From Desulfobacteraceae bacterium (GTDB lineage: Bacteria; Desulfobacterota; Desulfobacteria; Desulfobacterales; ETH-SRB1), in contig JAUVHU010000023.1 of NCBI GenBank assembly GCA_030593145.1, forward strand, positions 1 to 33,558: a stretch of 33,558 bases of DNA, written 5' to 3'. This document shows positions 649 to 33,392 of the stretch, piece by piece; within the stretch, counting starts at the first letter, position 1; each line of letters opens with the position of its first letter. A program made the position numbers and the translations under genes. Under the pieces are notes generated by a model that was given only the letters and a program-made list of their open reading frames with translations, was not told the origin of the DNA and did not search any database.

Positions 649-709
649 GGGAAAGTCAGGGATTAGTTGTCAGGGGTCAGGTGTCCAGAGATTATTGATC
701 GCTAAGATT

Positions 710-836
710 GATGGCTAAGTAAAAAGTTTCATATACAAGGCGTAGTGATTTTTCAGGATCGAAGGCATACGTATAGTATGTTGAGAGTCTGAAAAAACAC
801 TGCAACGCAGTAGATGGGACTTTTTACGACGCCATC
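710..836. repeat. MITE-like element with gatggc/gccatc terminal inverted repeats
   Basis: The left end reads gatggctaagtaaaaagt and the right end actttttacgacgccatc, an imperfect terminal inverted repeat. The interior is also self-complementary: AGGCGTAGTGATTTTTCAG near 738-756 pairs with CTGAAAAAACACTGCAACGC near 790-809. The whole element can therefore fold into one long hairpin. It has no coding capacity. The same ends recur at 5151, 6881, 14604, 18911, 24797 and 27004. It fills most of the gap before the RND gene. A short GTCAGGGGTCAGG-type word array (about 655-690) lies just to its left. Confidence 0.75.
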
Positions 837-5143: not shown

Positions 5144-5150
5144 GAATTAT

Positions 5151-5190
5151 GATGGTTTCGTAAAAAGTCACGAATTTAACTATAGATAGT
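5151..5190. repeat. Partial copy of the gatggc element
   Basis: It begins gatggtttcgtaaaaagtca and runs on into cgaatttaactatagatag. This matches the reverse complement of the right half of the copy at 27004-27061. It lies 8 nt after the barrel stop codon. No opposite end with a good match is seen, so it is a partial or decayed copy. Confidence 0.65.
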
Positions 5191-6592: not shown

Positions 6593-6880
6593 ATGAAAAA
6601 AATATTTGATGGTAAAAAAACAGCAAAATTAGGCTCTGAAAAGAATCCAGCTGTTGTTAATCTTCAAACAAAAAAAAGATTGAAAGAAGTAGTATCCATA
6701 TTTGAAAAAAACGGTTGGAAATATACAATTGAATTGGAACCAGATAAACCGGAGGATATTACCGATTTAGAGATATTATTGAATCCATCTAAAACTATGA
6801 TAGCTGAAAAGAAAGTTGGGCGCAACGAGCCATGTTCATGTGGAAGCGGGAAGAAGTATAAAAAATGCTGTGGTAAATAA
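6593..6880 (+). CDS. SWIM/SEC-C metal-binding motif protein, PBPRA1643-like
   Basis: The product is 95 aa from ATG 6593; the frame is also open to a GTG at 6554. The C-terminus carries a complete SEC-C zinc motif, [19 protein letters not shown]. The upstream part ([18 protein letters not shown], then [18 protein letters not shown] and [11 protein letters not shown]) matches my memory of the small PBPRA1643-type SWIM/SEC-C family, so this is a whole small protein and not a SecA fragment. Its cellular role is unknown. The start is weakly supported because only GGTGAT precedes the ATG. Its stop codon is followed at once by a gatggc element. Confidence 0.8.
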
Positions 6881-7069
6881 GATGGCGTCGTAAAAAGTCC
6901 ATTTTATTCACTTCATGACCATTTTGGGCGCAATTAAGATGTTTATCTAAAATGCAAGAACTCGGCCTAACGGCCTCAAACAGCTTGCATTTCTTAACGA
7001 TGAACATCTTAATTGCTTTTTCCCCAAAATGCTCAAAGTCGTTCACAAAAGACTTTTTACGAAGCCATC
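6881..7069. repeat. Full-length gatggc element forming a 189-bp hairpin
   Basis: The ends gatggcgtcgtaaaaagtc and gactttttacgaagccatc are inverted repeats. Inside, gcaattaagatgtttatc pairs with gatgaacatcttaattgc, ccattttgggc faces ccccaaaatg, and the tip is CGGCCTAACGGCC-like. Almost the entire element is palindromic. Reading frames across it are products of the palindrome and not genes. It starts at the first base after the SEC-C stop codon. Confidence 0.75.
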
Positions 7070-7161
7070 AAATAAGGCTATTTTATATTCTAAAAGACTG
7101 TAACTATAAGAAGTCTTTTTGCCGAACATTATATAAAGAATCCTGGTCCAAAGGATCGGGC

Positions 7162-7240
7162 TTTAGTTCACTTCAAACTCTTGCAGCGTTTCTTCAGGCA
7201 GAGCCGAAGAACTCTGACCTGGCCTTGAGGACCAGGTTTT
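7162..7240. other. Intergenic segment: shared 26-mer and possible terminator hairpin
   Basis: Bases 7162-7187 are an exact reverse complement, by eye, of 33226-33251 in the word element near the right edge. ACCTGG (7217-7222) and CCAGGT (7232-7237) form a short stem followed by TTTT, a weak candidate terminator. The rest of 7070-7340 shows no convincing gene: the frame open from 7239 only gains its ribosome-binding site at 7328-7333, directly before the ATG at 7341. Confidence 0.35.
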
Positions 7241-7340
7241 GAAGGGTAAAATAAAAAGTCTTAAAGTGGTGGTGATTGACATAGGCATCCGGCCCGCTGG
7301 TTATTCGCCACGATTCATTCTTAAGCGAGGAGGAATAGAT

Positions 7341-9709: not shown

Positions 9710-9780
9710 GGGATTAAGTGGTAGGGATTAACGGATTAAAATGTTTATGATAAGAGAATATTGAACGGCAGAGTAAAGCG
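9703..9780. repeat. GGGATT word array plus 29-bp core copy
   Basis: From the stop codon of the acidic gene onward the DNA reads as GGGATTAAG-like words (9703-9740), followed by a core segment at 9749-9777. That segment is an exact reverse complement, by eye, of 30470-30498. No opposite arm is evident. The rest of the gap to valS (9781-9932) is AT-rich with no gene seen. Confidence 0.6.
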
Positions 9781-9932: not shown

Positions 9933-12611
9933 ATGAGTTCAAATTTACTTGAAAAGGGTTATGAGCCACAAGACGTTGAAAAACGCTGGTATGATTTTTG
10001 GGAAAAAGAACAACTGTTTGCCGCTGATGAAGAGGGCGCTCAGAAAAGTTATTCCATTGTGATCCCACCGCCTAATGTTACCGGTGTGCTTCACATGGGG
10101 CATGCATTAAATATTACATTGCAGGATATTCTTTGCCGCTACAGGAGGCTGCGAGGAGATAATGTTTTATGGATGCCGGGAACAGATCACGCGGGTATTG
10201 CGACCCAGAATGTTGTGGAAAGAAAACTTGCTGCTGAAGGGTTGAATCGCCACACGCTTGGCAGGGATAAATTTATCGAGGCTGTATGGGAGTGGCGCAA
10301 AGAGTATGGAAGCGCAATAATTAATCAGCTTAAAGCTCTTGGGGCTTCATGTGACTGGAAACGTGAACGCTTTACAATGGATGATGGGTTGTCACGTTCA
10401 GTGCGGAAGGTTTTTGTAACTCTATTTAATGAAGGTCTTATCTATCGCGGCAATTATATGATTAACTGGTGCCCGCGCTGCAACACAGCTCTTGCCGATC
10501 TTGAGGTCGAACATGATGATCATAACGGCCATCTTTATTATATCCGCTATCCTTTTGCAAAAGGTTCAGGCAGTATAATTATTGCCACTACCAGACCTGA
10601 AACCATGCTGGGTGATACAGCGCTGGCTGTAAATCCTGATGATGAGCGGTATCAAAACATTGATTCCGACCATGTAATTCTTCCACTTGTAAACAAGGAA
10701 ATTCCCATAATCAAAGACTCTTATGTTGACATGTCATTCGGAACAGGCGGGCTTAAGGTTACACCTGCTCATGATCCTAACGACTTTGAGATAGGGTTGC
10801 GCCATAATCTTCAAACCGTAAAGGTTATTGGAGATGACGGGTTTATGACGTCAGAAGCCGGTAGATTTGAAGGGCTTGATCGGTTTAAATGCAGGGATGC
10901 TGTTATTAAAGCGCTTAAAAAGGAAGGATACCTGGAAAAAATCGAGCAGTACAACCACAGTGTCGGGCATTGTTACAGATGCAAGACAGTTGTTGAGCCG
11001 AACCTTTCGGAACAGTGGTTTATTAAAACAAAGCCGCTTGCTGAAAAAGCTATAAAAGCGGTTGAAAAAGGCGAGACAAAGATTATTCCTTCAGTCTGGA
11101 ATAAAACATATTTTGACTGGATGCATAACATAAAAGACTGGTGCATCTCGCGACAGATATGGTGGGGACATCAGATTCCCGCGTGGACATGTGAAAATTG
11201 CGGTGAGCTGGTGGTTGCGATAGATACACCTGAATCATGCCCGGCCTGCGGTGGGCATGATCTTGCGCAGGATGATGATGTTCTGGACACCTGGTTCAGT
11301 TCTGCGCTATGGCCTTTTTCCACCATGGGATGGCCGGACAAGACAATACTTTTAGATAAGTTTTATCCAACATCAGTACTGATTACAGGTTTTGACATCC
11401 TCTTTTTCTGGATAGCGAGGATGATGATGATGGGTATCCACTTTCTGGGAGAGGCGCCGTTTAAAGATGTTTATGTGCATGCTCTGGTGCGTGACGAAGA
11501 CGGTAAAAAGATGAGCAAGTCAAAGGGGAATGTTATTGACCCGCTGAGTGTTATAAACAGGTATGGAACAGATGCCTTCCGTTTTACTTTAGCGGCTTTT
11601 GCGGCACAGGGACGGGATATAAAGATGTCTGAAAAGCGGGTAGAAGGATACCGCAATTTTATAAATAAGCTATGGAATGCCGCCAGGTTTGCCCTGATGC
11701 ATATAACTGAAGAGAATTCAAAACCTTTCAGTCTTCAGCCTTCAGCTTCCAGCCTTTCTCTTACGGATCGATGGATTCTATCAAGGCTGAATAGTGTTAC
11801 TAAGACTGTTTCCGATGATCTTGACAACTACAGGTTTAATGATGCAGCCGGCACTCTTTACAAATTTGTATGGCATGAATTCTGCGACTGGTACCTGGAA
11901 TCTATAAAGCCATGCCTGTATGGCAAGGAAGAAGAGGGCAGACGTCAATCAACAACTGGTGTGCTGTGGTTTGTCCTGCGGAATACACTAATTTTGCTTC
12001 ATCCATTTATACCTTTTGTAACAGAAGAAATCTGGCATAAACTTCCGGGAACAAAGGGTTCTATTATGAAGGCGGTATTTCCTTTGGATAGTCCGGATGA
12101 TGCGTGTTATTTTCATGATCAGGAAGCTGAATCAACAATGGAATTAATTACAGAAATAATTTCCGGGATTAGAAATGTCAGGGGTGAAATGAATATTCCG
12201 CCGTCATCATTACTTGATGTTTCTGTACAGTCACAGAATACAACCACAAGGGAAATAATAAAAAAGCACCAGGATATTGTTATAAACCTTGCCGGACTGA
12301 AAAACCTTGCGGTTGAACAAACCGGTGAAAAGCCGAAGGCATCGGCTACAGCTATTGTTGGTAATGCTGCTATTTTTGTTTCACTTGAAGGAATAATCGA
12401 TTTTGCAAAAGAGGCAAAGCGGCTTGAAAAGGAGGTCGGGAAACTATCAGTGGAGCTTTCTGCGCTGTCAAAGAAATTGAACAATGAGGATTTTCTTCAA
12501 AAGGCGCCGGAATCGGTGGTTGAAAAGGTTAAGGAAAAGCACAGAGTCATTCTTGAAAAGCAGCAGAAATTAGAGGCAAACCTGGATAAGATTAAGGGAT
12601 TGAGGGATTGA
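9933..12611 (+). CDS. valS: Valyl-tRNA synthetase
   Basis: This class I synthetase charges tRNA-Val and has an editing domain. The start is ATG 9933, with AAGGTG at 9919-9924; the frame is open to a TTG at 9927. The product is 892 aa, normal for ValS. Visible motifs are PPPNVTGVLHMGHAL (HIGH-type), TTRPETMLGDTA in the CP1 editing domain, WTCENCG and SCPACGG cysteine pairs, and KKMSKSKGN (near 526). The C-terminal tRNA-binding coiled coil runs from KEAKRLEKEVGKL to the end. Two oddities are seen. An iterated CTTCAGCCTTCAGCTTCCAGC stretch (about 11731-11755) encodes the linker SLQPSASSLSL. The last residues, IKGLRD, and the stop codon are encoded by a GGGATT word array. Confidence 0.97.
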   Translation: MSSNLLEKGYEPQDVEKRWYDFWEKEQLFAADEEGAQKSYSIVIPPPNVTGVLHMGHALNITLQDILCRYRRLRGDNVLWMPGTDHAGIATQNVVERKLAAEGLNRHTLGRDKFIEAVWEWRKEYGSAIINQLKALGASCDWKRERFTMDDGLSRSVRKVFVTLFNEGLIYRGNYMINWCPRCNTALADLEVEHDDHNGHLYYIRYPFAKGSGSIIIATTRPETMLGDTALAVNPDDERYQNIDSDHVILPLVNKEIPIIKDSYVDMSFGTGGLKVTPAHDPNDFEIGLRHNLQTVKVIGDDGFMTSEAGRFEGLDRFKCRDAVIKALKKEGYLEKIEQYNHSVGHCYRCKTVVEPNLSEQWFIKTKPLAEKAIKAVEKGETKIIPSVWNKTYFDWMHNIKDWCISRQIWWGHQIPAWTCENCGELVVAIDTPESCPACGGHDLAQDDDVLDTWFSSALWPFSTMGWPDKTILLDKFYPTSVLITGFDILFFWIARMMMMGIHFLGEAPFKDVYVHALVRDEDGKKMSKSKGNVIDPLSVINRYGTDAFRFTLAAFAAQGRDIKMSEKRVEGYRNFINKLWNAARFALMHITEENSKPFSLQPSASSLSLTDRWILSRLNSVTKTVSDDLDNYRFNDAAGTLYKFVWHEFCDWYLESIKPCLYGKEEEGRRQSTTGVLWFVLRNTLILLHPFIPFVTEEIWHKLPGTKGSIMKAVFPLDSPDDACYFHDQEAESTMELITEIISGIRNVRGEMNIPPSSLLDVSVQSQNTTTREIIKKHQDIVINLAGLKNLAVEQTGEKPKASATAIVGNAAIFVSLEGIIDFAKEAKRLEKEVGKLSVELSALSKKLNNEDFLQKAPESVVEKVKEKHRVILEKQQKLEANLDKIKGLRD

Positions 12612-12682
12612 GGGATTGAGGGATTAAATTCAACAGGATACCTTTAATTCCTAAATTCCCTAATTCCTTAATCTCTAAATTT
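12591..12682. repeat. Empty GGGATT word element (valS-nadC)
   Basis: The left arm (12591-12626) is gggattga iterated. The core at 12620-12648 includes ATTAAATTCAACAGGATACC. The right arm (12645-12682) reads aattcctaaattccctaatt and onward, the reverse sense of the left. It matches the cores at 16574-16601 and 21671-21698 with one or two differences. It has no reading frame inside. It supplies the valS stop codon and ends just before the nadC ribosome-binding site. Confidence 0.75.
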
Positions 12683-12695
12683 AATGAGGATTTGC

Positions 12696-14550: not shown

Positions 14551-14603
14551 TTTTGTTTGTATGATAAATAGTTGTTGATTATAATCTTTATTTCGTAAAT
14601 ATT

Positions 14604-14663
14604 GATGGCGTTGTAAAAAGTCGAAAAGCTACTTTTTACGAACCGTAATAGTTTCGTAAAAAA
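14604..14663. repeat. Short gatggc element between divergent genes
   Basis: It begins gatggcgttgtaaaaagtc and is followed by an inverted ctactttttacgaac and then a further tttcgtaaaaaatt. The hairpin GTAAAAAGT...ACTTTTTAC has a 10-nt loop. It lies upstream of both lepA and the REC-GGDEF gene, so it could influence either promoter. Confidence 0.6.
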
Positions 14664-14743: not shown

Positions 14744-16540
14744 ATGGGAAATATTAGAAACTTCAGCATAATTGCTCATATTGATCACGGCAAATCCACT
14801 TTGTCTGACCGTCTTATCCAGGCCACTGATATAGTGTCTGACCGGGATTTTCAGGATCAGATTCTTGACACCATGGATATAGAACGGGAGCGCGGTATCA
14901 CGATAAAAAGCCAGAGCGTCTGCCTTCCATATACTGCAAAGGACGGACGAACATATACTTTGAACTTGATAGACACTCCTGGCCACGTGGACTTTACTTA
15001 TGAAGTTTCACGAGCTCTTGCTTCCTGTGAAGGGGCTCTTCTTTTGATAGACGCAAGCCAGGGCGTTGAGGCACAGACTCTGGCCAATCTTTATCTCGCC
15101 ATGGAACACGATCTTGTAATTATTCCTGTTATCAATAAAATAGATTTGCCGTCTGCTGATATTGAAAGGGTGAAAGGGCAGATAGAAAAGGATCTTGGGC
15201 TTGATCCTGAAGAAGCGATTCTTATATCAGCCAAGGAAGGAATCGGTATAGAAGGTGTACTCGAAGGTGTTGTACAAAAACTTCCGCCTCCCTCAGGAGA
15301 CTCAAGCGCGCCCTTTAAGGCTTTGATTTTTGATTCACATTACGATTCTTTCCGTGGCACTATTATTCATTTCCGGGTATTTGAGGGTAAAATAAAGCCG
15401 GGCGATCTTATTTCCTTTATGACAAATAAGGCTGTGTACAAAATAGAGGAGTTAGGAATATTTCAGATAAACCGGGTGCCGCAGAAAGAGCTTTCAGCAG
15501 GTCAGGTGGGGTATATTATCGCGGGGATTAAAACAGTAAGTGATATAAAATGCGGCGATACAATTACATTAAAGAACATGCCCTGTAAAACTCCGATATT
15601 GGGATTTAAGGAGGCAAAGCCGGTTGTCTTTTCTTCAATTTATCCTGTTGCTGCCGACGATTATGAAGAACTTATTGTTGCGATGGAAAAACTCAAGCTG
15701 AATGATGCCTCTCTGATTTATGAAAAAGATAGTTCCGCGGCTTTAGGTTTTGGCTTTCGCTGCGGCTTTCTGGGCCTTCTACATCTCGAGGTTGTACAGG
15801 AAAGGCTTGAGCGTGAATATAATCTTTCCCTTATATTAACAGCGCCGTCTGTTCGGTACAAACTGATTATGCAGGACGGTTCAATGCTCATAATTGATAA
15901 CCCCGCCTTATATCCTGATCCAACTATTATCGAACATACTGAGGAGCCGTTTATTCGTGCCTCAATTATAATACCGGATCATTACATGGGTGCGGTTATG
16001 AAACTGTGTCTTGATCGTCGGGGAATAAATCGAAATTATCAGTACCTTACAAATGATCGCCTTGAAATGATTTTTGAATTGCCACTTGCAGAGATAGTTT
16101 ATGATTTTTATGACAGACTCAAATCCATTACCCAGGGCTATGGATCGTTTGATTACGATATGCTTGATTACAGAAATACCGATCTTGTAAAGCTTGATAT
16201 GTTAATTAATGGAGATCGTGTTGACGCGCTTTCTCAGCTTGTTCACAGGGACAGAGCTGTTGAAAGGGCAAGGCGTGCCTGTGAAAAGCTGCGAGGTGAA
16301 ATTCCAAAGCAGATGTTTAAAATAGCCATACAGGGAGCTATTGGCGGGAAAATAATAGCTCGGAAGACTGTTTCCGCTTTTAGAAAGGATGTTACGGCAA
16401 AATGTTATGGCGGGGATATTTCCAGAAAACGCAAGCTTCTTGAAAAGCAGAAAAAAGGGAAGAAAAGAATGAAGATGATAGGCAAGGTAATGATTCCTCA
16501 GTCTGCATTTTTGTCGGTTTTGAAAACAGATGGGGATTAG
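14744..16540 (+). CDS. lepA: Elongation factor 4 (back-translocating GTPase)
   Basis: The 598-aa translational GTPase acts on stalled or mistranslocated ribosomes. The G domain has AHIDHGKST (11-19), DTPGH (near 76-80) and NKID (near 131). A LepA-specific C-terminal domain follows, with basic segments KCYGGDISRKRKLLEKQKKG and KMIGKVMIPQSAF. Length is standard (about 600). AAGG lies upstream of the ATG. The last codon and stop (GAT TAG) fall at the start of the S23-containing word element, so the C-terminus has an unusual final GD. It heads a codirectional run with S23, leuC and leuD. Confidence 0.97.
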   Translation: MGNIRNFSIIAHIDHGKSTLSDRLIQATDIVSDRDFQDQILDTMDIERERGITIKSQSVCLPYTAKDGRTYTLNLIDTPGHVDFTYEVSRALASCEGALLLIDASQGVEAQTLANLYLAMEHDLVIIPVINKIDLPSADIERVKGQIEKDLGLDPEEAILISAKEGIGIEGVLEGVVQKLPPPSGDSSAPFKALIFDSHYDSFRGTIIHFRVFEGKIKPGDLISFMTNKAVYKIEELGIFQINRVPQKELSAGQVGYIIAGIKTVSDIKCGDTITLKNMPCKTPILGFKEAKPVVFSSIYPVAADDYEELIVAMEKLKLNDASLIYEKDSSAALGFGFRCGFLGLLHLEVVQERLEREYNLSLILTAPSVRYKLIMQDGSMLIIDNPALYPDPTIIEHTEEPFIRASIIIPDHYMGAVMKLCLDRRGINRNYQYLTNDRLEMIFELPLAEIVYDFYDRLKSITQGYGSFDYDMLDYRNTDLVKLDMLINGDRVDALSQLVHRDRAVERARRACEKLRGEIPKQMFKIAIQGAIGGKIIARKTVSAFRKDVTAKCYGGDISRKRKLLEKQKKGKKRMKMIGKVMIPQSAFLSVLKTDGD

Positions 16541-17053
16541 GGGATTGAGGAATTTAGGAATTTGGGGATTAAGGGATTAAATTCAATAGGATACCTTCAA
16601 CTCCTAAATTCAATAGGAATTAAGGGATTATGAATTACAAGAGGTTTGAGGAATTACCATGCTGGCAAAAGTCGAGGGAGCTATGCAAGATCATTTTTGA
16701 TTTGATCAATCAAGGGGGATGTTCAAGGGATTTTAGCTTGAGGAATCAAATTTGGAGCGCTGCCGGTTCGGTGATGGACAATATAGCGGAAGGCTTTGAC
16801 GATGGTTCAACTCGTGAATTTATCCGGTTCTTAGGGTATTCTCAAAGATCGTGCAGTGAAGTGCAATACCAATTATATAGGGCATTAGACTGTAAATATA
16901 TTAACCAGAGTCAGTTTGAAAAAGCTTATGAGATTGCCTCAGAATGTCGTAAGCAAACCAAGGGATTTAGAAAGTATTTGCGGGATTATGATTTCAAGAA
17001 ATAGCAGTAAACCAGAAATTCCTTAATTCCTAAATCCCTTAATTCCTAAATTA
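16532..17053 (+). mobile_element. GGGATT word hairpin element carrying a four-helix-bundle gene
   Basis: The left arm (16532-16580) is gggattgaggaatttagg and similar words. The core (16574-16602) contains ATTAAATTCAATAGGATACC. After it, ctcctaaatt starts the right arm, which is interrupted by a copy of aaattcaataggaa and then the S23 gene (16630-17004). The right arm resumes at 17015-17053 with aattccttaattcctaaatc words. Both flanks are reverse complements in word content, so the gene sits in the loop or arm of a long hairpin. Two empty copies with the same core lie at 12591-12682 and 21635-21728. The arrangement resembles intervening sequences in 23S rRNA, which carry the same protein family, but here it lies between protein genes. 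Confidence 0.6.
16630..17004 (+). CDS. Four helix bundle protein (S23/23S rRNA intervening-sequence protein family)
   Basis: The 124-aa all-helical protein has family hallmarks: an opening YKRFEELPCWQKSREL, LRNQIWSAAGSVMDNIAEGF (NIAEG at 51-55), REFIRFLGYSQRSCSE, and a last helix ECRKQTKGFRKYL. Members were first seen in intervening sequences of 23S rRNA and form pentameric four-helix bundles; their function is unknown and the old name 'ribosomal protein S23' is misleading. The gene lies within a word element that even supplies its AAGGG ribosome-binding site (16623-16626 region, only about 3 nt from the ATG). It interrupts the lepA-leuC interval. Transfer together with the element is likely but inferred. 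Confidence 0.88.
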   Translation: MNYKRFEELPCWQKSRELCKIIFDLINQGGCSRDFSLRNQIWSAAGSVMDNIAEGFDDGSTREFIRFLGYSQRSCSEVQYQLYRALDCKYINQSQFEKAYEIASECRKQTKGFRKYLRDYDFKK

Positions 17054-18390: not shown

Positions 18391-18912
18391 ATGAAAAATT
18401 TCAGTGGCAAAGCGTTGTTTCTTGATAGATCGGATATAAACACAGATGAAATAATCCCGGCAAAATACCTTACGGAAATTTCCAGGAAAGCGTTAAAACC
18501 TTATCTCCTGGAAGATATAAAATTAGACGGATTTGACAAAAAGGATGTTGAAGGGAAAAGCGTTATTATCACAAGGGCAAATTTCGGATGCGGATCTTCA
18601 AGGGAACATGCTCCCTGGGCGCTCGAGGGAAATGGGATCAACCTGGTAATTGCCGAGAGTTTTGCCAGAATTTTCAGACAGAACATGTATAATTGCGGCA
18701 TGATGGCTGTGGAACTGTCCGCCCAGGCTATTGAACATCTTTTTAATGATTTTGCAGGCAAAGAAACATTTGTTGAAACCGATCTCGAGAAAAACAGATT
18801 TATTTTGCAGGATGATGAACATAAACAGGAGATACCCTTTGAGATTTTCGAGTTTGACAGGGCTCTTGTTGAAGCCGGCGGATGGGTGGAATATGCTGAT
18901 TTGAGATATTGA
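18391..18912 (+). CDS. leuD: 3-isopropylmalate dehydratase / homoaconitase small subunit (archaeal-type)
   Basis: The 173-aa swivel-domain subunit binds the substrate and completes the LeuCD enzyme. It has SDINTDEIIPAKYLTE near the N-terminus and the FGCGSSREHAPWAL motif (about 66-78), with Arg in the SREH loop for substrate contact. I start at ATG 18391 with GGAGA at 18381-18385; the frame is open to a TTG at 18379 that lies in the word array. It is 32 nt after leuC. The stop codon (TGA, 18910-18912) overlaps the first bases of a gatggc element. Confidence 0.9.
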   Translation: MKNFSGKALFLDRSDINTDEIIPAKYLTEISRKALKPYLLEDIKLDGFDKKDVEGKSVIITRANFGCGSSREHAPWALEGNGINLVIAESFARIFRQNMYNCGMMAVELSAQAIEHLFNDFAGKETFVETDLEKNRFILQDDEHKQEIPFEIFEFDRALVEAGGWVEYADLRY

Positions 18913-18962
18913 TGGCGTTATAAAGAGTAAATTAATCACGTCTCTTTTCAAGGCGTACGCCG
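18911..18962. repeat. Degenerate gatggc element overlapping the leuD stop
   Basis: It starts gatggcgttataaagagtaa inside the leuD stop codon and continues with cacgtctcttttcaaggcg. The right end is decayed. It lies in the gap between convergent leuD and glnD. Confidence 0.5.
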
Positions 18963-21617: not shown

Positions 21618-21634
21618 GTTTCGATAATTTCTCT

Positions 21635-21728
21635 TGAATTTAGGAATTTGGGGATTAAGGAATTTAGGCATTGAAGGTATTCTATTGAATTTAATCCCTC
21701 AATTCCTCAATTCCCTAATCCCTCAATC
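21635..21728. repeat. Empty GGGATT word element (glnE-glnD)
   Basis: On the minus strand it reads GGATTGAGGGATTAGGG-type words from the glnE stop codon. The core (21671-21698) has ATTAAATTCAATAGAATACC, one base different from the S23-element core. An opposite arm of AAATTCCTTAATCCCC words follows. It has no gene. It supplies the glnE stop and would give glnD a false N-terminus if the longest frame were used. Confidence 0.75.
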
Positions 21729-24662
21729 CATCAATTTCTTCCAGATCTTTCTTATTTGTTTCCGCAGATCATGAAATTGATTTTCAGGCACTATGGCGGG
21801 TTTTTCCTGAAGGCTCAGGCTGTGAACCGCTTTTCTGTAGTTCAGGTATGCATCCTTGAGAAGATGAGCTGTATGTTTGTCAATAACCCCTGTTTCCGCC
21901 AGGGTTTGAAGAAGACGCACATTGTCGGTCCATTTTAATAGTTCGTTATGTTTATAAGAGTTTAAAAGCACGAGGTACTGTACCAGAAATTCAATATCAA
22001 CGATTCCGCCTGCATCCTGTTTAATGTCAAACGATTTTGGCTTATGTCTTAAGTATTCTTTACGCATGCGTTCGCGCATGTCACGAACCTCTTCTTTAAG
22101 TTTGGCCTGTGTTCTCGGGCGAGCAATTGTATCTTTCCTTATCTGCTCAAAATAGTTTGATAGATAAATGTTTCCACTTATTGCTCTTGCCCTCACAAGA
22201 GCCTGATGTTCCCATGTCCATGCCTTGTTTATCTGGTAATCTCTAAATGCTTCAATATGAGTAACCAGAATACCCGAACTTCCGCTGGGGCGCAGTCTTG
22301 TATCGGTTTCATATAGCGCCCCTGCAGGTGTATGAGCTGTCAGTATATGTACAATTCTCTGTCCAAGACGCGCGAAAAACTGCGAGTTGTCAATAGGGCT
22401 TATGCCGCCATGGGTTTGCCCTCTGGTTCCAGCGTGGAGAAAAACCAGATCAAGGTCACTTCTATATCCAAGTTCAATTCCTCCAAGCTTTCCGTATGCA
22501 ATGACAACGAATCCTTTCTCGATTTTTTTCCCATCTATTTCGCAAACAGGCGTTCCGTATTTTTTAATTAGATGATTCCAGGCTAATTCAAGGACTTTAT
22601 CTACTATTGTTTCGGCAAGTTCGGTAAGATGATCGCTGGTTATCATTAGCTTTATGGAGCCGGTGACATCCGCGGCCCCCACACGCAGCATGTTAATCTG
22701 TTTGAAAATACACAATTCCTGTATCTGATATTCAAGATCTTCAGGCTGGACTACTTCAAGTTTTTTGCGTATTTCCTTTTCAAGCTCATTCCTGTCAGGC
22801 GGAGAATAAAGAGTGCGTGAATCAAGCAGTTCATCTAAAAGCACAGGGTGGTGAGACAGGAAAGACACGATCCATGGACTGGCGCTTGATAAATTTACGA
22901 GATGTGTAAGAGCGGTTGGATTTTCAAGAAGAAGGGCTATATAGCAGGTTCGCCTTTCAATGGTTTTTATTAAATCGATTATACGGATTAGGACAGTGTG
23001 AGGGTGCTCAGACTTGCCGACCTCTTTTAAAACAAGCGGCATAAGCTTGTCCAGGCGTTTTCTGCCTTCTATACTCAGCTTCTGTGTGTGCGGATCATTG
23101 CGAAGATTATTAAGCAGGCTGAGTGCTTTGTCAGCTATCTCAAATCCGGCAGCAAAAAGGATTTGTCCGGCTTTTTCTTTTTCCACAAGATTTAGCCAGA
23201 CGCTCTGTAATCCGGTAAGTTCTTTATCTGCTGAATCTGCCTGGATTTCTACATTACTTGTGGCCAGCAATGTGTTGAAATGATAATTAACAGCATCCAT
23301 GTGATTTTTAAGATTTTTTGCAAAAGACTCCCAGTTTTCAAAACCCATTGATACGGCAAGCCGTATTTTTCCAGACTGGTCTGAGGGAAGCTGATGGGTC
23401 TGCTGGTCTGAAAATTCTTGCAGGCGGTGTTCGGTGTTTCGTAAAAACCTGTACGCTGTTATAAGTTCATTACAAACATCTTCAGGGATATGTTTTTCCT
23501 GCGAGAGAACGGTTAGCGCCTTTTGAATACTCCGCTCTTGAAGAGCAGGTATCACACCGCCCCGGATTAACTGGAACATCTGGCCGAAGAATTCTATTTC
23601 ACGAATTCCTCCAGGGCCAAGTTTAATGTTGTTTTTCAGCCCCTTACGATGCGCTTCAAGATGGATCTTTTGTTTCATATTTCTCAATGAATCAAAGACC
23701 CCAAAATCCAGGTATCTACGATAAACAAAGGGCTTCAAAATTTCCAAAAGTCGGCTGCCGGCGTTATTGTCATCGGCAATGATTCTTGCTTTTATCCAGG
23801 CATAACGCTCCCATTCACGTCCCTGGCTCTGGTAATATGATTCAATGTTATCGAAATTCATAACCAAAGGCCCGCTTTCGCCATAGGGCCTAAGGCGCAT
23901 GTCCATTCTGAACACAAGACCGTCTGAAGTTGTTGCTCCGATCATACTTAAAAGGTTCCGGCAAAGACGCATAAAAAAATCTTCATTACTTATAGATTTT
24001 GATTTCCCTTTTGTTTTTCCTGGTTCCGGAAAGGCAAAAATCAGATCAATATCAGAAGAAAAATTAAGTTCATATGCTCCAAGCTTTCCCATTCCTATAA
24101 CCACAAGATATTGAGGAGTACCGTTGGTTCCGGTGGGGATTCCGTATTCCTGAGATAGTTTTCCGTGAAGAAGCAAAAGCGTATGTTTTATACATGAATC
24201 GGCAAAGGCTGAAAGCTCTGCCATGGTTTCATCGAGGTCAGCCCAGCCTGAAAGATCACGCCAGGCAATTCGAACCATTTCACGAAGACGGAACGTGCGA
24301 AGTATATGCTGCATCTCAGGCAGAGTATACACAGAGCCGCTGGAAGGAAGCAGTTTCTTCAGCCTGTTGTTATAATCATCCGGAATATATCTTTGCTGGA
24401 GATCGCCGCTTTTGATTAGATTATCAAGAATATGCGGATGATGGATGCAGGTTCTTGCTACAAAATCGCTAAAGGCAAAGACCTGCTTTAATGCGGCAAG
24501 CATTTCAGTATTATATGAAGGGGTTATTTTTGAGTTTTTTGCCGATAAACAGAAGTCCTTCCATCTGTTATTAAAATCGCCGGATAGTTGTTCAGGAAGG
24601 TTATTGGATTGTTGATTTATGATTGTTGATTTATGATTGATGGAATCGCTCCTGCCCGCCAT
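21723..24662 (-). CDS. glnE: Glutamine synthetase adenylyltransferase / deadenylase
   Basis: The 979-aa bifunctional enzyme adds or removes AMP on glutamine synthetase under PII control. Two nucleotidyltransferase domains are visible: GMGKLGAYELNFSSDIDLIF (near 190-209, deadenylase side) and YGKLGGIELGYRSDLDLVF (near 720-740, adenylylase side), separated by a helical linker. Length is normal to slightly long. The first 21 or so residues (MAGRSDSINHKSTIINQQSN) are encoded by repeat DNA: a core piece and ATCATAAATCAAC words. The start at 24662 has an AGGG upstream but may not be original; the next in-frame Met is about 50 residues in, too late for a whole protein. The final Asp and stop lie in the downstream word element. 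Confidence 0.95.
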   Translation of the reverse strand: MAGRSDSINHKSTIINQQSNNLPEQLSGDFNNRWKDFCLSAKNSKITPSYNTEMLAALKQVFAFSDFVARTCIHHPHILDNLIKSGDLQQRYIPDDYNNRLKKLLPSSGSVYTLPEMQHILRTFRLREMVRIAWRDLSGWADLDETMAELSAFADSCIKHTLLLLHGKLSQEYGIPTGTNGTPQYLVVIGMGKLGAYELNFSSDIDLIFAFPEPGKTKGKSKSISNEDFFMRLCRNLLSMIGATTSDGLVFRMDMRLRPYGESGPLVMNFDNIESYYQSQGREWERYAWIKARIIADDNNAGSRLLEILKPFVYRRYLDFGVFDSLRNMKQKIHLEAHRKGLKNNIKLGPGGIREIEFFGQMFQLIRGGVIPALQERSIQKALTVLSQEKHIPEDVCNELITAYRFLRNTEHRLQEFSDQQTHQLPSDQSGKIRLAVSMGFENWESFAKNLKNHMDAVNYHFNTLLATSNVEIQADSADKELTGLQSVWLNLVEKEKAGQILFAAGFEIADKALSLLNNLRNDPHTQKLSIEGRKRLDKLMPLVLKEVGKSEHPHTVLIRIIDLIKTIERRTCYIALLLENPTALTHLVNLSSASPWIVSFLSHHPVLLDELLDSRTLYSPPDRNELEKEIRKKLEVVQPEDLEYQIQELCIFKQINMLRVGAADVTGSIKLMITSDHLTELAETIVDKVLELAWNHLIKKYGTPVCEIDGKKIEKGFVVIAYGKLGGIELGYRSDLDLVFLHAGTRGQTHGGISPIDNSQFFARLGQRIVHILTAHTPAGALYETDTRLRPSGSSGILVTHIEAFRDYQINKAWTWEHQALVRARAISGNIYLSNYFEQIRKDTIARPRTQAKLKEEVRDMRERMRKEYLRHKPKSFDIKQDAGGIVDIEFLVQYLVLLNSYKHNELLKWTDNVRLLQTLAETGVIDKHTAHLLKDAYLNYRKAVHSLSLQEKPAIVPENQFHDLRKQIRKIWKKLMD
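24602..24660 (-). repeat. GATTTATGATTGTT word array with core end
   Basis: On the plus strand gattgttgatttat is repeated (24608-24638) and joins gatggaatcgctcctgcc (24639-24656). Read on the minus strand, that core end, AGCGATTCCATC, resembles AGCGATTTCATC at 30409-30420 and AGCGACTCCATC at 33309-33320, each next to or near a word arm. It overlaps the glnE 5' end. To the right, 24663-24800 is a GC-rich patch without a visible gene. Confidence 0.5.
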
Positions 24663-24796
24663 AGCGAGCCCTATCGTCTTTTTGTTGGCTCGACCGCCCG
24701 CCTCGCCTGAGCGGACGTCTTGAGCGGCGCTGACTATCTCCCTTAAAATATTCTTTCTTGAAAATCAATGCTTTTAACATGAAAGCCGCTTTATTT

Positions 24797-24830
24797 GATG
24801 AACTCATAAAAAGCCACAAATTTAACTGAC
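24797..24830. repeat. Partial gatggc element
   Basis: The sequence gatgaactcataaaaagcca with following caaatttaactg matches the partial copy at 5151 and the reverse of the right half of 27004-27061. It is decayed and has no partner end. It lies upstream of the small four-Cys gene. Confidence 0.5.
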
Positions 24831-26253: not shown

Positions 26254-27003
26254 ATGGAAAAAGAAGCCATTATTCAGGTAAAAGACCTTACTTCAGAACA
26301 TGGGGATAATCTGATTCTTGACAATGTGAGTTTTGACGTTTTCAGGAAAGAAATTCTTGTAATAGCGGGTTCAAGCGGATGCGGAAAAAGTACTTTGCTG
26401 AGACATATGGTGGGGTTAGACATACCTGTGTCTGGAAAGATACTGATAAACGGCATCGATATTACTTCCTGTGATGAGGCTGCTTTTCTGAGTGTTTTAA
26501 AAAAAATCGGCATTTTGTTCCAGAGCAGCGCTCTTTTAGGTTCTATGACTATTGCGGATAATGTAGCTCTTCCTATTTTAGAATACTCTGGCCTGCCTGA
26601 AAGTTTTATACAGGATATTGTCAGGATGAAGCTTTGCATGGTCGATCTGGCAGGTTATGAAGATTATTTTCCTTCTGAATTAAGCGGAGGGATGAAAAAA
26701 AGAGCGGGTCTTGCAAGGGCACTGGCGCTTAATCCTGAAATACTGTTTCTTGATGAACCGTCCGCGGGACTTGATCCGATTGTTTCGGCAGAAATAGATG
26801 AATTGATTTTACATATAAATAAGAGTATTGGTACAACAATAATTATTGTTACCCATGAACTTGAAAGCATTTTTCATGTTGCCCAGCGGGTTGTGATGCT
26901 TGATAAAAAAACAAAGGGCATAATCGCCGAAGGAACGCCGGAACACCTGAAAAACCATAGTGGTATTCCGTTTGTCAGGCAGTTTTTTAACAGGACGAAA
27001 TAA
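26254..27003 (+). CDS. mlaF: Mla-type lipid ABC transporter ATP-binding protein
   Basis: The 249-aa ABC ATPase powers the MlaE permease. Walker A is GSSGCGKST (near 38-46), the Q-loop is in GILFQSSALL, the signature is LSGGM (near 143), Walker B is ILFLDEP (near 163), and the switch His is in THELESI (near 200). Length is typical. It is separated from mlaE by 2 nt, so it is translationally coupled. A gatggc element begins at the first base after its stop codon and separates it from mlaD. Confidence 0.94.
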   Translation: MEKEAIIQVKDLTSEHGDNLILDNVSFDVFRKEILVIAGSSGCGKSTLLRHMVGLDIPVSGKILINGIDITSCDEAAFLSVLKKIGILFQSSALLGSMTIADNVALPILEYSGLPESFIQDIVRMKLCMVDLAGYEDYFPSELSGGMKKRAGLARALALNPEILFLDEPSAGLDPIVSAEIDELILHINKSIGTTIIIVTHELESIFHVAQRVVMLDKKTKGIIAEGTPEHLKNHSGIPFVRQFFNRTK

Positions 27004-27061
27004 GATGGCGTCGTAAAAAGTCCCATCTATAGTTAAATCCGTGACTTTTTACTAAACCATC
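27004..27061. repeat. Minimal gatggc element inside the mla operon
   Basis: The ends gatggcgtcgtaaaaagtc and gactttttactaaaccatc flank an interior of about 20 bp. It is the smallest complete copy in the window. It begins directly after the mlaF stop and lies before mlaD, and could fold as a hairpin in the operon mRNA. Confidence 0.7.
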
Positions 27062-27094
27062 AAATAAGGTATGGTTTGTTGATTTAATAAACAA

Positions 27095-28710: not shown

Positions 28711-30327
28711 GTGAACCGCCAGAAACTTCATGATATTCCGGCATGGAAAAAGCTCATAAAGCATGCCCGTTTTATGACTTTTCCTGAAAAGCATTTAAAA
28801 CATCTTGTTAAAGAAAAAAACAGACTTGAAAAATTTTCTTTGCAAGGCGCTGAAATTTTTTATGATTTTTCCCGCCAGAGAGTAGATAAAAAAGCCATGG
28901 ACCTTTTGTTTGAGCTGGCCGACGCAAGAAAATTAAAGGAAAGCTTTAACTTGATGGCAAGCGGGGAAAAGGTAAATACAACGGAAAACAGGGCAGTACT
29001 TCATACAGCATCAAGAAATTTTTCAAACAATTCTGTTCTTGTTGATAATAAGGATGTAATGCCTGAAATAAGTAAAGTCAGGGATGATATCAAAGGGTTT
29101 GTTTCAAAAGTTCATAATGGAGAGATAACAGGAACCACAGGAAAGCCGTTTAAACACATTATAGTTATAGGGATTGGCGGGTCATACCTTGGCACGGAAT
29201 TTGTTTCCAGTGCGTTGCATGCTTATGCTGATAAAGATATTAAAATTGATTATCTGTCAAATGTAGATACCCATAATTTTGGGAGGATAATATCATATAT
29301 TGATCCTGAAACCACCCTCTGGATCGTTATTTCAAAGAGTTATACAACCGCGGAGACAATGGCAAACGTAAAGCTTGCCTACGCCTTTATGGAAGAAAAA
29401 GGGCTTGACCCTGCAAAACATTTTGTAACTGTTACAAGCAAGGGCAGTCCGGGTGATGATAAAAAAACACCTGTTATACGCTCATTCCATATGTTTGACT
29501 TCATAGGCGGAAGATACAGCGTAACCTCTGCGGTCGGCGGGGTGCCGCTTAGTTTGTATCTTGGATATGACCGGTTTGAACGTTTTCTAAAAGGCGCTGA
29601 AGAGATGGATAATCACGCAAGGTCTGCGCCTGTTCATCAAAACCTCCCGCTTATCGCAGCCATTATCGGAGTGTGGAACAATAATTTTCTTGGATACCAG
29701 GAGCAGGCTATTATTCCGTATGCCGCGCCGTTGCATAAGCTGGCGCCTCATATCCAGCAGTTAGTTATGGAAAGTAATGGAAAATCTGTTACAAGAGAAG
29801 GGGATATTCTAAATGAATCCACCGGTGTAATAGTATTTGGAGAGCCCGGCACAAACGCGCAGCATTCATTTTTTCAACTGGCTCATCAGGGCCGTCCGTT
29901 TCCCATTGATTTTATCGGGGTGATCAAACCACAGTATGAACAGTTTCAATGCAGATCAAAAGGGGTCACAAACCATCAGGAACTATGGGCGAACCTTATT
30001 GCCCAGCCCATGGCGCTGGCTGTTGGAAAGGATGACAAGGACAAAGCAAGATATTTCCCCGGCAACAGGCCATCCTCAACAATTATTTTAAATGATCTTT
30101 TGCCTGAAAACATTGGACGTCTTCTATCCTTTTATGAAGCTAAAACTGTTTTTGAAGCCTTTATCTGGGACATTAATCCATTTGATCAGTTTGGCGTCGA
30201 GCTTGGCAAAACCATGGCTTCCGGCATTAGAAATGAGATCGCGACAAAAAATGATAAAAGCGACCATACTTTTGAAGGAATGGATCATATAACCAAATCA
30301 TATCTTGATATGCTTTTTAAAAAGTAA
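28711..30327 (+). CDS. pgi: Glucose-6-phosphate isomerase
   Basis: The 538-aa cytoplasmic enzyme interconverts glucose-6-phosphate and fructose-6-phosphate. Motifs are GIGGSYLGTEF (near 155), SKSYTTAETMANV (near 209), GGRYSVTSAVG, the catalytic Glu in MESNGKSVT (near 353), and the C-terminal signature INPFDQFGVELGKTM with catalytic Lys near 496. The GTG start at 28711 has GGAG 8 nt upstream. It lies 51 nt after the mla lipoprotein gene and may be read through from that operon. An array-rich element follows its stop. The minus-strand class II aldolase in the window acts two steps later in glycolysis. Confidence 0.96.
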   Translation: MNRQKLHDIPAWKKLIKHARFMTFPEKHLKHLVKEKNRLEKFSLQGAEIFYDFSRQRVDKKAMDLLFELADARKLKESFNLMASGEKVNTTENRAVLHTASRNFSNNSVLVDNKDVMPEISKVRDDIKGFVSKVHNGEITGTTGKPFKHIIVIGIGGSYLGTEFVSSALHAYADKDIKIDYLSNVDTHNFGRIISYIDPETTLWIVISKSYTTAETMANVKLAYAFMEEKGLDPAKHFVTVTSKGSPGDDKKTPVIRSFHMFDFIGGRYSVTSAVGGVPLSLYLGYDRFERFLKGAEEMDNHARSAPVHQNLPLIAAIIGVWNNNFLGYQEQAIIPYAAPLHKLAPHIQQLVMESNGKSVTREGDILNESTGVIVFGEPGTNAQHSFFQLAHQGRPFPIDFIGVIKPQYEQFQCRSKGVTNHQELWANLIAQPMALAVGKDDKDKARYFPGNRPSSTIILNDLLPENIGRLLSFYEAKTVFEAFIWDINPFDQFGVELGKTMASGIRNEIATKNDKSDHTFEGMDHITKSYLDMLFKK

Positions 30328-30333
30328 GAAAAG

Positions 30334-30558
30334 ATGAACGTCGAACATCGAACGTCCAACATCGAATTTTGAATAAGGAATTCTGCCAATTTATAAATCG
30401 GCAGAGCGAAGCGATTTCATCATTCGATGTTCAAAGTTCGATGTTCGATGTTCGACGTTCAAAAGAACTTTTACTCTGCCGTTCAATATTCTCTTATCCC
30501 ACGCTCCTGCGTGGCAACAAGAAACCGACAACCGTGAACCGTGAACCTCTGAACCTGC
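30334..30558. repeat. GAACATC word hairpin with core, followed by GTGAACC array and second core
   Basis: The left arm (30334-30372) reads gaacgtcgaacatcgaacg and so on, and the right arm (30421-30464) is its reverse complement in words (ttcgatgttcgatgttcgac). They enclose a core at 30373-30420 with TAAGGAATTCTG and GGCAGAGCGAAGCG. Within the core TCTGCC/GGCAGA can form a small stem. Then 30470-30498 is an exact inverse copy of 9749-9777, and GTGAACCGTGAACC words follow at 30534-30556. The whole pgi-Nudix gap is repeat DNA without a gene. Confidence 0.7.
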
Positions 30559-33203: not shown

Positions 33204-33392
33204 GACGGTTCACAGTTCACGGTTGGCTGCAAGAGTTTGAAGTGAACTAAAGTTTGAAGTGCGCTAAAGTTAAGGAATTCTGTCAATCATATAAAATCAG
33301 CGGAGCGGAGCGACTCCATCCCGCCGTGCTCGCGCTCGTCGCGGCAGGAACTTTAGGCACTTTAGCTCACTTTAGGCACTTCAAACTTGTAC
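33204..33392. repeat. TTTGAAGTGC word hairpin with core
   Basis: The left arm (33226-33270) reads gtttgaagtgaactaaag twice with variation. The right arm (33349-33388) reads aactttaggcactttagctc and onward in the opposite sense. The core at 33271-33348 contains TAAGGAATTCTG and GCGGAGCGGAGCGACTCC, close to the core at 30373-30420, plus a GC-rich inner hairpin (CCCGCC...GGCAGG). GGTTCAC words lie at 33207-33224. With AT-rich DNA on either side this fills the 33047-33467 gap; no gene is seen. Confidence 0.7.

What the first reader, a model, noticed from the sequence alone, without database searches (positions are those of the whole stretch)
30334..30498. Different word arms but a shared core: a modular hairpin family
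Seen: the 30334-30464 hairpin (GAACATC words) and the 33226-33388 hairpin (TTTGAAGTGC words) have unrelated arms, yet their loops share TAAGGAATTCTG and a GCAGAGCGAAGCG-type segment in the same order. A related core end, AGCGATTCCATC, joins a third word type at 24639-24660. In each case the arm consists of imperfect iterations of an 8-11 nt word, mirrored on the other side. Arms that diversify while staying self-complementary, around a constant core, suggest active templated generation or gene conversion and not simple decay.
Basis: partly seen in the sequence, partly recalled or inferred. Interest (0 to 1): 0.72.

Follow-up and report, generated by a model that had tools for sequence, protein, structure and literature searches.

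The report
Word-armed hairpins from four-helix-bundle elements
The hairpins are gene-less copies of a widespread, apparently mobile bacterial element whose gene for a small four-helix-bundle protein sits between mirrored arrays of a short repeated 'word', a different word for each protein lineage, which suggests where such short repeats in many bacterial genomes come from.

Summary
The hairpins at 30334 and 33226 have unrelated word arms around one homologous core, and 24639-24660 is the right half of that core beside a third word. The core occurs at 11 places in the 2.5-Mb genome (reversed control 0) and in many Desulfobacterales genomes. The explanation lies outside the window. Genes of the 23S_rRNA_IVP family (PF05635; also called S23 or four helix bundle proteins) sit between mirrored arrays of an iterated word, mostly 7 nt. 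In 88 of 125 loci the two arms are complementary across the gene (own score 44, permuted 19). There are about 40 word classes, and they follow the protein lineage. IVP genes carrying each of the finding's three words exist (L351/L353, L335/L333, L350/L020). Pieces of the core lie next to the gene in examples of all three. So the hairpins look like gene-deleted, MITE-like derivatives, comparable to REPINs of RAYT genes. The 30334 site is occupied by different word elements in relatives and is empty in one. Per-copy arm co-variation is not seen inside the core families, so 'templated generation' is not shown. The transposition mechanism is unknown; reverse transcriptase is not required. Word arms also flank IVP genes on cyanobacterial and Bacteroidota plasmids.

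The parts
30334..30373 (+). left arm, GAACATC/GAACGTCC words (7-nt period)
   Evidence: same arm flanks IVP genes L351 and L353
30374..30421 (+). core A (TAAGGAATTCTGCC...GGCAGAGCGAAGCGATTTCATC)
   Evidence: 11 places in own genome, reversed control 0; right half directly follows the IVP gene in L351/L353
30422..30462 (+). right arm, reverse complement of the words
30463..30498 (+). right-hand flank shared with sister copies (AAAGAACTTTTACTCTGCCGTTCAATATTCTCTTATC); exact inverted match at 9749-9777
33226..33271 (+). left arm of the second hairpin, TTTGAAGTGAACTAAAG words
   Evidence: related words flank IVP genes L335, L333, L332, L338
33272..33319 (+). core A, second subtype
   Evidence: reverse complement of its left half directly follows the IVP gene in L335 and L333
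33320..33348 (+). nested GC-rich hairpin inserted into the core (CCCGCCGTGCTCGCGCTCGTCGCGGCAGG)
   Evidence: absent from most sister copies; same insert at other points in L006, L012
33349..33388 (+). right arm of the second hairpin
24607..24660 (-). remnant: GATTGTTGATTTAT words joined to the right half of core A; its words match the arms of IVP gene L020 (G000 contig C84)
16533..16628 (+). left arm (GATTGAGG words, 8-nt period) plus core B of an IVP-carrying element
16630..17004 (+). 23S_rRNA_IVP (four helix bundle) gene, 124 aa
   Evidence: PF05635 E=1.1e-29
17014..17053 (+). right arm of the IVP element
   Evidence: one 8-nt word absent on both arms in ortholog L173
12590..12684 (+). gene-less hairpin with the same GATTGAGG words and core B as the IVP element at 16533-17053
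21634..21728 (-). inverted gene-less copy of the same hairpin (83% complementary to 12590-12684)
7161..7254 (-). half copy of the TTTGAAGTG element (left arm and outer flank)
   Evidence: flank consensus

Best explanation
The hairpins are gene-deleted, non-autonomous (MITE-like) members of apparently mobile elements built as: word arm, inner flank, 23S_rRNA_IVP gene, inner flank, mirrored word arm. SHOWN by sequence: IVP genes lie between complementary arrays of an iterated word; the word is specific to the protein lineage; IVP genes with the same three words as the finding exist, and in examples of each word family pieces of core A lie beside the gene; elements sit at unrelated sites and vary between relatives at one site. 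INFERRED: core A is what remains when the gene is lost; the IVP protein, a nucleic-acid-binding four-helix bundle by analogy with its relatives, recognises its own word arrays and helps move or maintain both gene-bearing and gene-less copies, as RAYT is thought to do for REPINs. Iterated words would let the arms pair in many registers, so arms can lengthen, shorten and drift while staying complementary. NOT KNOWN: the enzyme that cuts and joins DNA, and whether pairing matters as DNA or as RNA.
For: Arms across the gene: first set of 67 IVP loci own 44.2 v permuted 18.8 (sd 0.74, max of 2000 permutations 24.1) v random positions 18.1; second set of 58, own 43.5 v 19.3; U-D score >=35 in 88/125, with arms as separate halves in most, only 12/88 having a complete hairpin on one side; 40 word classes. 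Period 7 or 14 in 33/46, 8 in 7, 9 in 4. Word sharing by protein identity, different sites only: >=85% 0.95, 70-85% 0.71, 60-70% 0.29, <50% about 0.01. Same words as the finding around IVP genes: L351/L353, L335/L333, L350, L020; core pieces adjacent to the gene. Two recent copies at unrelated sites, L134/L157. Site 30334: different word elements in G071, G083, G077, G074, G076, chimera in G079, empty in G023. Sense orientation between same-strand neighbours 36 v 2. Cyanobacteria/Bacteroidota plasmids: 10 loci own 39.5 v cross 19.0.
Against: No transposition was observed, and no catalytic residues or target-site duplication were identified. Pfam classes IVP as an rRNA intervening-sequence protein, not a transposase. 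In the own genome the GAACATC and TTTGAAGTG families have no intact gene-bearing partner among the IVP loci examined; the partners are in related genomes. Core-A motif counts in IVP flanks as a whole (6/125) are not above the own-genome background rate; the evidence is its position in the matching word families. About a third of IVP loci show no clear arms.
Confidence: 0.8

Rival explanations
1. RNA-level element, as in 23S rRNA intervening sequences: the arms form a double-stranded RNA stem in an operon transcript, RNase III removes it, and selection on RNA pairing keeps the arms complementary.
For: Same protein family and ORF-in-loop layout as the Coxiella IVS, whose terminal inverted repeats are cut by RNase III (PMC4990558); strong sense-strand orientation, 36 v 2; stable predicted stems.
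Against: Wobble pairs are not favoured over A-C mismatches in arms (112 v 107, p=0.79), as RNA-pairing selection would predict. No Rfam match, rRNA included, in 20 IVP loci tested.
Confidence: 0.3
2. REP/REPIN system moved by a Y1 (RAYT) transposase; IVP is a passenger.
For: Hairpin repeats dispersed in intergenic DNA; Y1_Tnp in 52 of 58 genomes and in all 16 genomes with five or more IVP matches; two Y1 genes in the own genome.
Against: The two own Y1 genes are not bracketed by mirrored word arms as IVP genes are; beside one of them lies a decayed IVP-type element. IVP and Y1 counts are not significantly correlated (rho 0.21, p 0.12); several genomes with IVP have no Y1 match (G008, G011, G022, G043, G050); words track IVP lineage.
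Confidence: 0.15
3. Reverse-transcriptase copying (Avd-like, as in diversity-generating retroelements): IVP recruits an RT that self-primes on the folded arms and rewrites one arm from the other.
For: The cyanobacterial plasmid IVP L287 has a weak match to the bAvd family (E 0.005, below cut-off); would explain mirrored arms.
Against: No RVT_1 match in the own genome, nor in G041 (18 IVP matches), G037 (23), G016 and G014 (11 each); IVP and RT counts uncorrelated (rho 0.04, p 0.74). No per-copy arm co-variation.
Confidence: 0.05
4. Ordinary slippage repeats that happen to form hairpins, with the IVP gene inserting into them as a target.
For: Short-period tandem arrays are slippage-prone; gene-less word hairpins exist.
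Against: In recent copies the arms and further outer sequence move with the gene to unrelated sites (L134/L157); word class follows protein lineage.
Confidence: 0.1

Closest known systems
REPIN-RAYT systems (PMC3116915)
   Same: Dispersed intergenic hairpins related to sequences flanking a single gene family, several lineages each with its own repeat, non-autonomous copies outnumbering genes
   Different: The gene is a 23S_rRNA_IVP four-helix bundle, not a Y1 transposase; the ends are iterated words with about 40 alternatives, not fixed GTAG-type palindromes
23S rRNA intervening sequences encoding S23p (Coxiella, Leptospira; PMC4990558)
   Same: Same protein family (PF05635), ORF in the loop of a long inverted repeat, regarded as selfish
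   Different: Elements here lie in protein-gene intergenic regions, not rRNA; arms are iterated words; many copies per genome; gene-less derivatives
Cyanobacterial STRR/heptanucleotide repeats, tRNA-Leu P6b heptanucleotide hairpins (PMC3488679), GGGNATC repeats (PMC4692102), TAACTGA heptamers (PMC4679880)
   Same: Dispersed degenerate heptamer arrays, some folding into hairpins, in Cyanobacteria, Bacteroidetes and others; for TAACTGA, the route of spread reported as not evident
   Different: In the papers read or found here they were not linked to IVP genes; here such arrays flank IVP genes, including on cyanobacterial plasmids
Bacterial MITEs
   Same: Internally deleted, gene-less, terminal inverted repeats
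   Different: No recognised transposase in the parent; termini are variable word arrays
Avd of diversity-generating retroelements
   Same: Related small four-helix-bundle family (weak bAvd match for one member)
   Different: No RT association found

Membership tests
23S_rRNA_IVP / S23 four helix bundle (PF05635) | Match to the curated family model | tested here: met
   window ORF 16630-17004 E=1.1e-29, 103 bits v cut-off 33.8; profile finds solved chains 2gsc and 2rld
23S rRNA intervening sequence (IVS) | Located inside rRNA | tested here: not met
   no Rfam match, rRNA included, in 20 IVP loci; the window copy lies between two protein genes (LepA-type and LeuC-type by sequence) and the only Rfam match in the window is a tRNA
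23S rRNA intervening sequence (IVS) | ORF in the loop of long complementary ends | tested here: met
   88/125 loci; two permutation tests
23S rRNA intervening sequence (IVS) | RNase III excision | not testable with these tools
   needs RNA data; wobble-pair test gave no RNA signal
REPIN-RAYT | Associated Y1 tyrosine transposase | tested here: not met
   own Y1 genes are not bracketed by mirrored word arms; words follow IVP
REPIN-RAYT | Dispersed hairpins sharing ends with the associated gene | tested here: met
   GATTGAGG hairpins and IVP element in the same window
MITE | Terminal inverted repeats and no ORF, related to an autonomous element | tested here: met
   core-A hairpins v L335, L350, L351, L353; that the gene-bearing element is itself autonomous is not shown
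MITE | Target-site duplication | tested here: inconclusive
   element edges not resolved at the 30334 site
Diversity-generating retroelement | Reverse transcriptase present | tested here: not met
   no RVT_1 match in the own genome
STRR / heptanucleotide repeats | Degenerate tandem words of about 7 nt, dispersed | tested here: met
   period 7/14 in 33/46 arms; cyanobacterial plasmid IVP loci

The most novel reading that the evidence does not exclude
A class of mobile element in which a transposase-free four-helix-bundle (IVP) protein recognises and spreads its own lineage-specific heptamer-word arms, with the word co-evolving with the protein, and which is the source of the dispersed heptamer repeats (STRR, TAACTGA and similar) of Cyanobacteria, Bacteroidetes and others.
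Probability: 0.35. Interest if true: 0.93.

Novelty: new variant of a known kind. Interest (0 to 1): 0.8.

Why it matters
Short degenerate repeats of about 7 nt have long been reported in cyanobacteria and other bacteria without an agreed origin (one study of TAACTGA repeats states that no mechanism of transfer is evident; PMC4679880). Tying word arrays to a protein family gives them a candidate agent and makes the question testable. The 23S_rRNA_IVP family itself is described as functionally uncharacterised (PMC11270868); lineage-matched words give an immediate binding hypothesis. The work also gives about 40 protein-word pairs to test.

Tried and rejected
Per-copy arm co-evolution within the core families: tested and not found. 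Reverse transcriptase as required partner: rejected. Y1/RAYT as the associated gene: not supported. RNA wobble signature in arms: none. Rfam families: only a tRNA in the window, none in 20 IVP loci. Two composite flanking hairpins as the general architecture: found in a few loci (L335, L350) but not the rule. Core-A motif enrichment over all IVP flanks: not above background. A strict census of 428 kb, 394 kb of it outside the window, found 13 word hairpins, 0 in shuffles of part of it, but the threshold is strict and misses many, including the 33226 hairpin. An alignment or covariance model of the core was not built; pattern counts and direct comparison were judged enough.

Full report
OBSERVATION. 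Both hairpins exist at the stated places. 30335-30461 has 80% complementary arms and folds at -59.6 kcal/mol, z -9.6; 33236-33385 folds at -56.6, z -5.5. Their arms are unrelated but the cores are homologous: the left core motif has two matches in the window (expected 0.13), the right one three, the third being the remnant at 24639-24659 on the minus strand (expected 0.01). In the whole genome the two-part core occurs at 11 distinct places and never in the reversed-pattern control. A scan of public genomes listed 100 stretches, nearly all from Desulfobacterales.

SUBFAMILIES. The copies fall mainly into three word types, each with its own core subtype: TTTGAAGTG (75 of 113 tabulated), GAACATC, and GATTGAA. 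Nine to ten copies have the TTTGAAGTG right arm and core but an unrelated left arm, and L077 joins a GAACATC left half to a TTTAGG right arm, so the halves can recombine at the core. GAACATC word pairs occur 161 times in the own genome, 0 in the reversed control. Within a family a copy's arms are not better matched to each other than to other copies' arms, so copies spread as a consensus.

THE GENE. The window itself holds an IVP gene (16630-17004; PF05635, E 1.1e-29) between GATTGAGG-type word arms, and two gene-less hairpins with the same words and the same inner sequence at 12590-12684 and, inverted, 21634-21728. The own genome has 11 PF05635 matches, several of them fragments, and the intact ones have word arrays on both sides. 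In 58 genomes of the order, 43 have matches, up to 23 per genome; 14 control genomes have none.

STATISTICS. For 67 loci, local alignment of the 260 nt upstream with the reverse complement of the 260 nt downstream scores 44.2 on average against 18.8 when partners are permuted (sd 0.74, largest of 2000 permutations 24.1) and 18.1 at random positions. A second set of 58 loci gives 43.5 against 19.3. In all, 88 of 125 loci reach 35, falling into 40 word classes. The best period is 7 or 14 in 33 of 46 arms, 8 in 7, 9 in 4. At different genomic sites, proteins at least 85% identical share the word in 95% of pairs, 70-85% in 71%, 60-70% in 29%, below 50% in about 1%. When the word differs between lineages, both arms differ together: own 55 against cross 23 at 60-70% identity.

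LINK TO THE FINDING. L351 and L353 (loci from genomes carrying core-A hairpins) are IVP genes with GAACATC arms, and GGAGCGAAGCGATAGCATTATTCG or GCGGAGCGAAGCGACATCATTATTCG follows the gene: this is the right half of core A. In L335 and L333 the arms are AGTGCCTAAAGTGAGCTAAAG-type words and, just after the gene of L335, CTTTAAAATAGCCAGAATACCTTAAC is the reverse complement of a close version of the left half of core A; L333 has a similar stretch. L350 carries GATTGAA words and a complete core-A hairpin just after the gene, with a second one before it. L020, in the own genome, shares the third word with window 24607-24642. The three protein groups are about 32-40% identical to each other, against 23-24% to the window's own IVP for the first two groups. 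The simplest reading is that core A predates the split of the three word families, and that the hairpins lost the gene.

MOBILITY. L134 and L157 are near-identical copies, arms and outer leader included, at unrelated sites of one genome. Downstream of the gene preceding the 30334 hairpin (its product looks like glucose-6-phosphate isomerase, named here from its sequence only), relatives carry GAACATC hairpins with other loops (G071, G074), GATTGTCG words (G083), GGCTGAA words (G077), GTGAACTAAAG words around an inverted core (G076), a chimera (G079), or nothing (G023). G069 has 50 PF05635 matches, many at contig ends. Between the window IVP element and its ortholog L173, one 8-nt word is missing on both arms, a single instance of mirrored change.

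OTHER PHYLA. Ten IVP loci on plasmids of Cyanobacteria and Riemerella score 39.5 against 19.0 for swapped partners; words include GGGGAAAA, TTTTAGC, GGGAGTA and GTCAGGA.

MECHANISM. IVP genes lie in the sense direction between same-strand neighbours 36 times against 2 antisense (orientation judged by longest open stretch), and the upstream arm is richer in G than C in 75 of 84 loci with a difference. That suggests transcription matters. Yet wobble pairs are not enriched over A-C mismatches (112 v 107), so RNA pairing is not shown to be under selection. Reverse transcriptase is absent from the own genome and several IVP-rich ones and its count is uncorrelated with IVP. Y1 transposases are nearly ubiquitous and only weakly correlated, and the own Y1 genes are not bracketed by mirrored word arms. 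The best-supported model is a REPIN-RAYT-like relationship (PMC3116915) with IVP in the place of RAYT; the recombination enzyme is unknown.

PRIOR WORK. Ten text searches of the held library found rRNA intervening sequences with S23p (PMC4990558), IVP called functionally uncharacterised (PMC11270868), and heptamer repeats in cyanobacteria and others (PMC4679880, PMC4692102, PMC3488679), but no paper joining the two. The library lacks most subscription journals, so prior description cannot be excluded.

Noticed in passing
window 705-727, 811-844, 5145-5187, 6875-6907, 7043-7077, 14599-14621, 18906-18928, 24791-24827, 26998-27069: A different dispersed inverted repeat, GATGGCGTCGTAAAAAGTC, about nine copies in both orientations
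   Followed up: no
window 33320-33348; L006, L012, L014, L018, L019, L022: A nested GC-rich hairpin (CCCGCCGTGCTCGCGCTCGTCGCGGCAGG) inserted at various points of these elements, apparently moving on its own
   Followed up: partly
window 30470-30498 and 9749-9777: Exact 29-nt inverted match, the outer flank of the GAACATC subfamily, isolated at 9749
   Followed up: partly
region downstream of the gene at window 28711-30327 in G071, G074, G076, G077, G079, G083, G023: One intergenic site occupied by different word elements in relatives, empty in G023
   Followed up: yes
L187: IVP gene with unusually long arms made of short palindromes (TTTGCGCACTGCGTGCGCG)
   Followed up: no
G049: 43 matches to reverse transcriptase, many with identical scores, in one genome
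   Followed up: no
alignment A1: IVP proteins share near-invariant polar residues Q40, S47, N51, E54, E77 (numbering as printed), possibly a functional site
   Followed up: no
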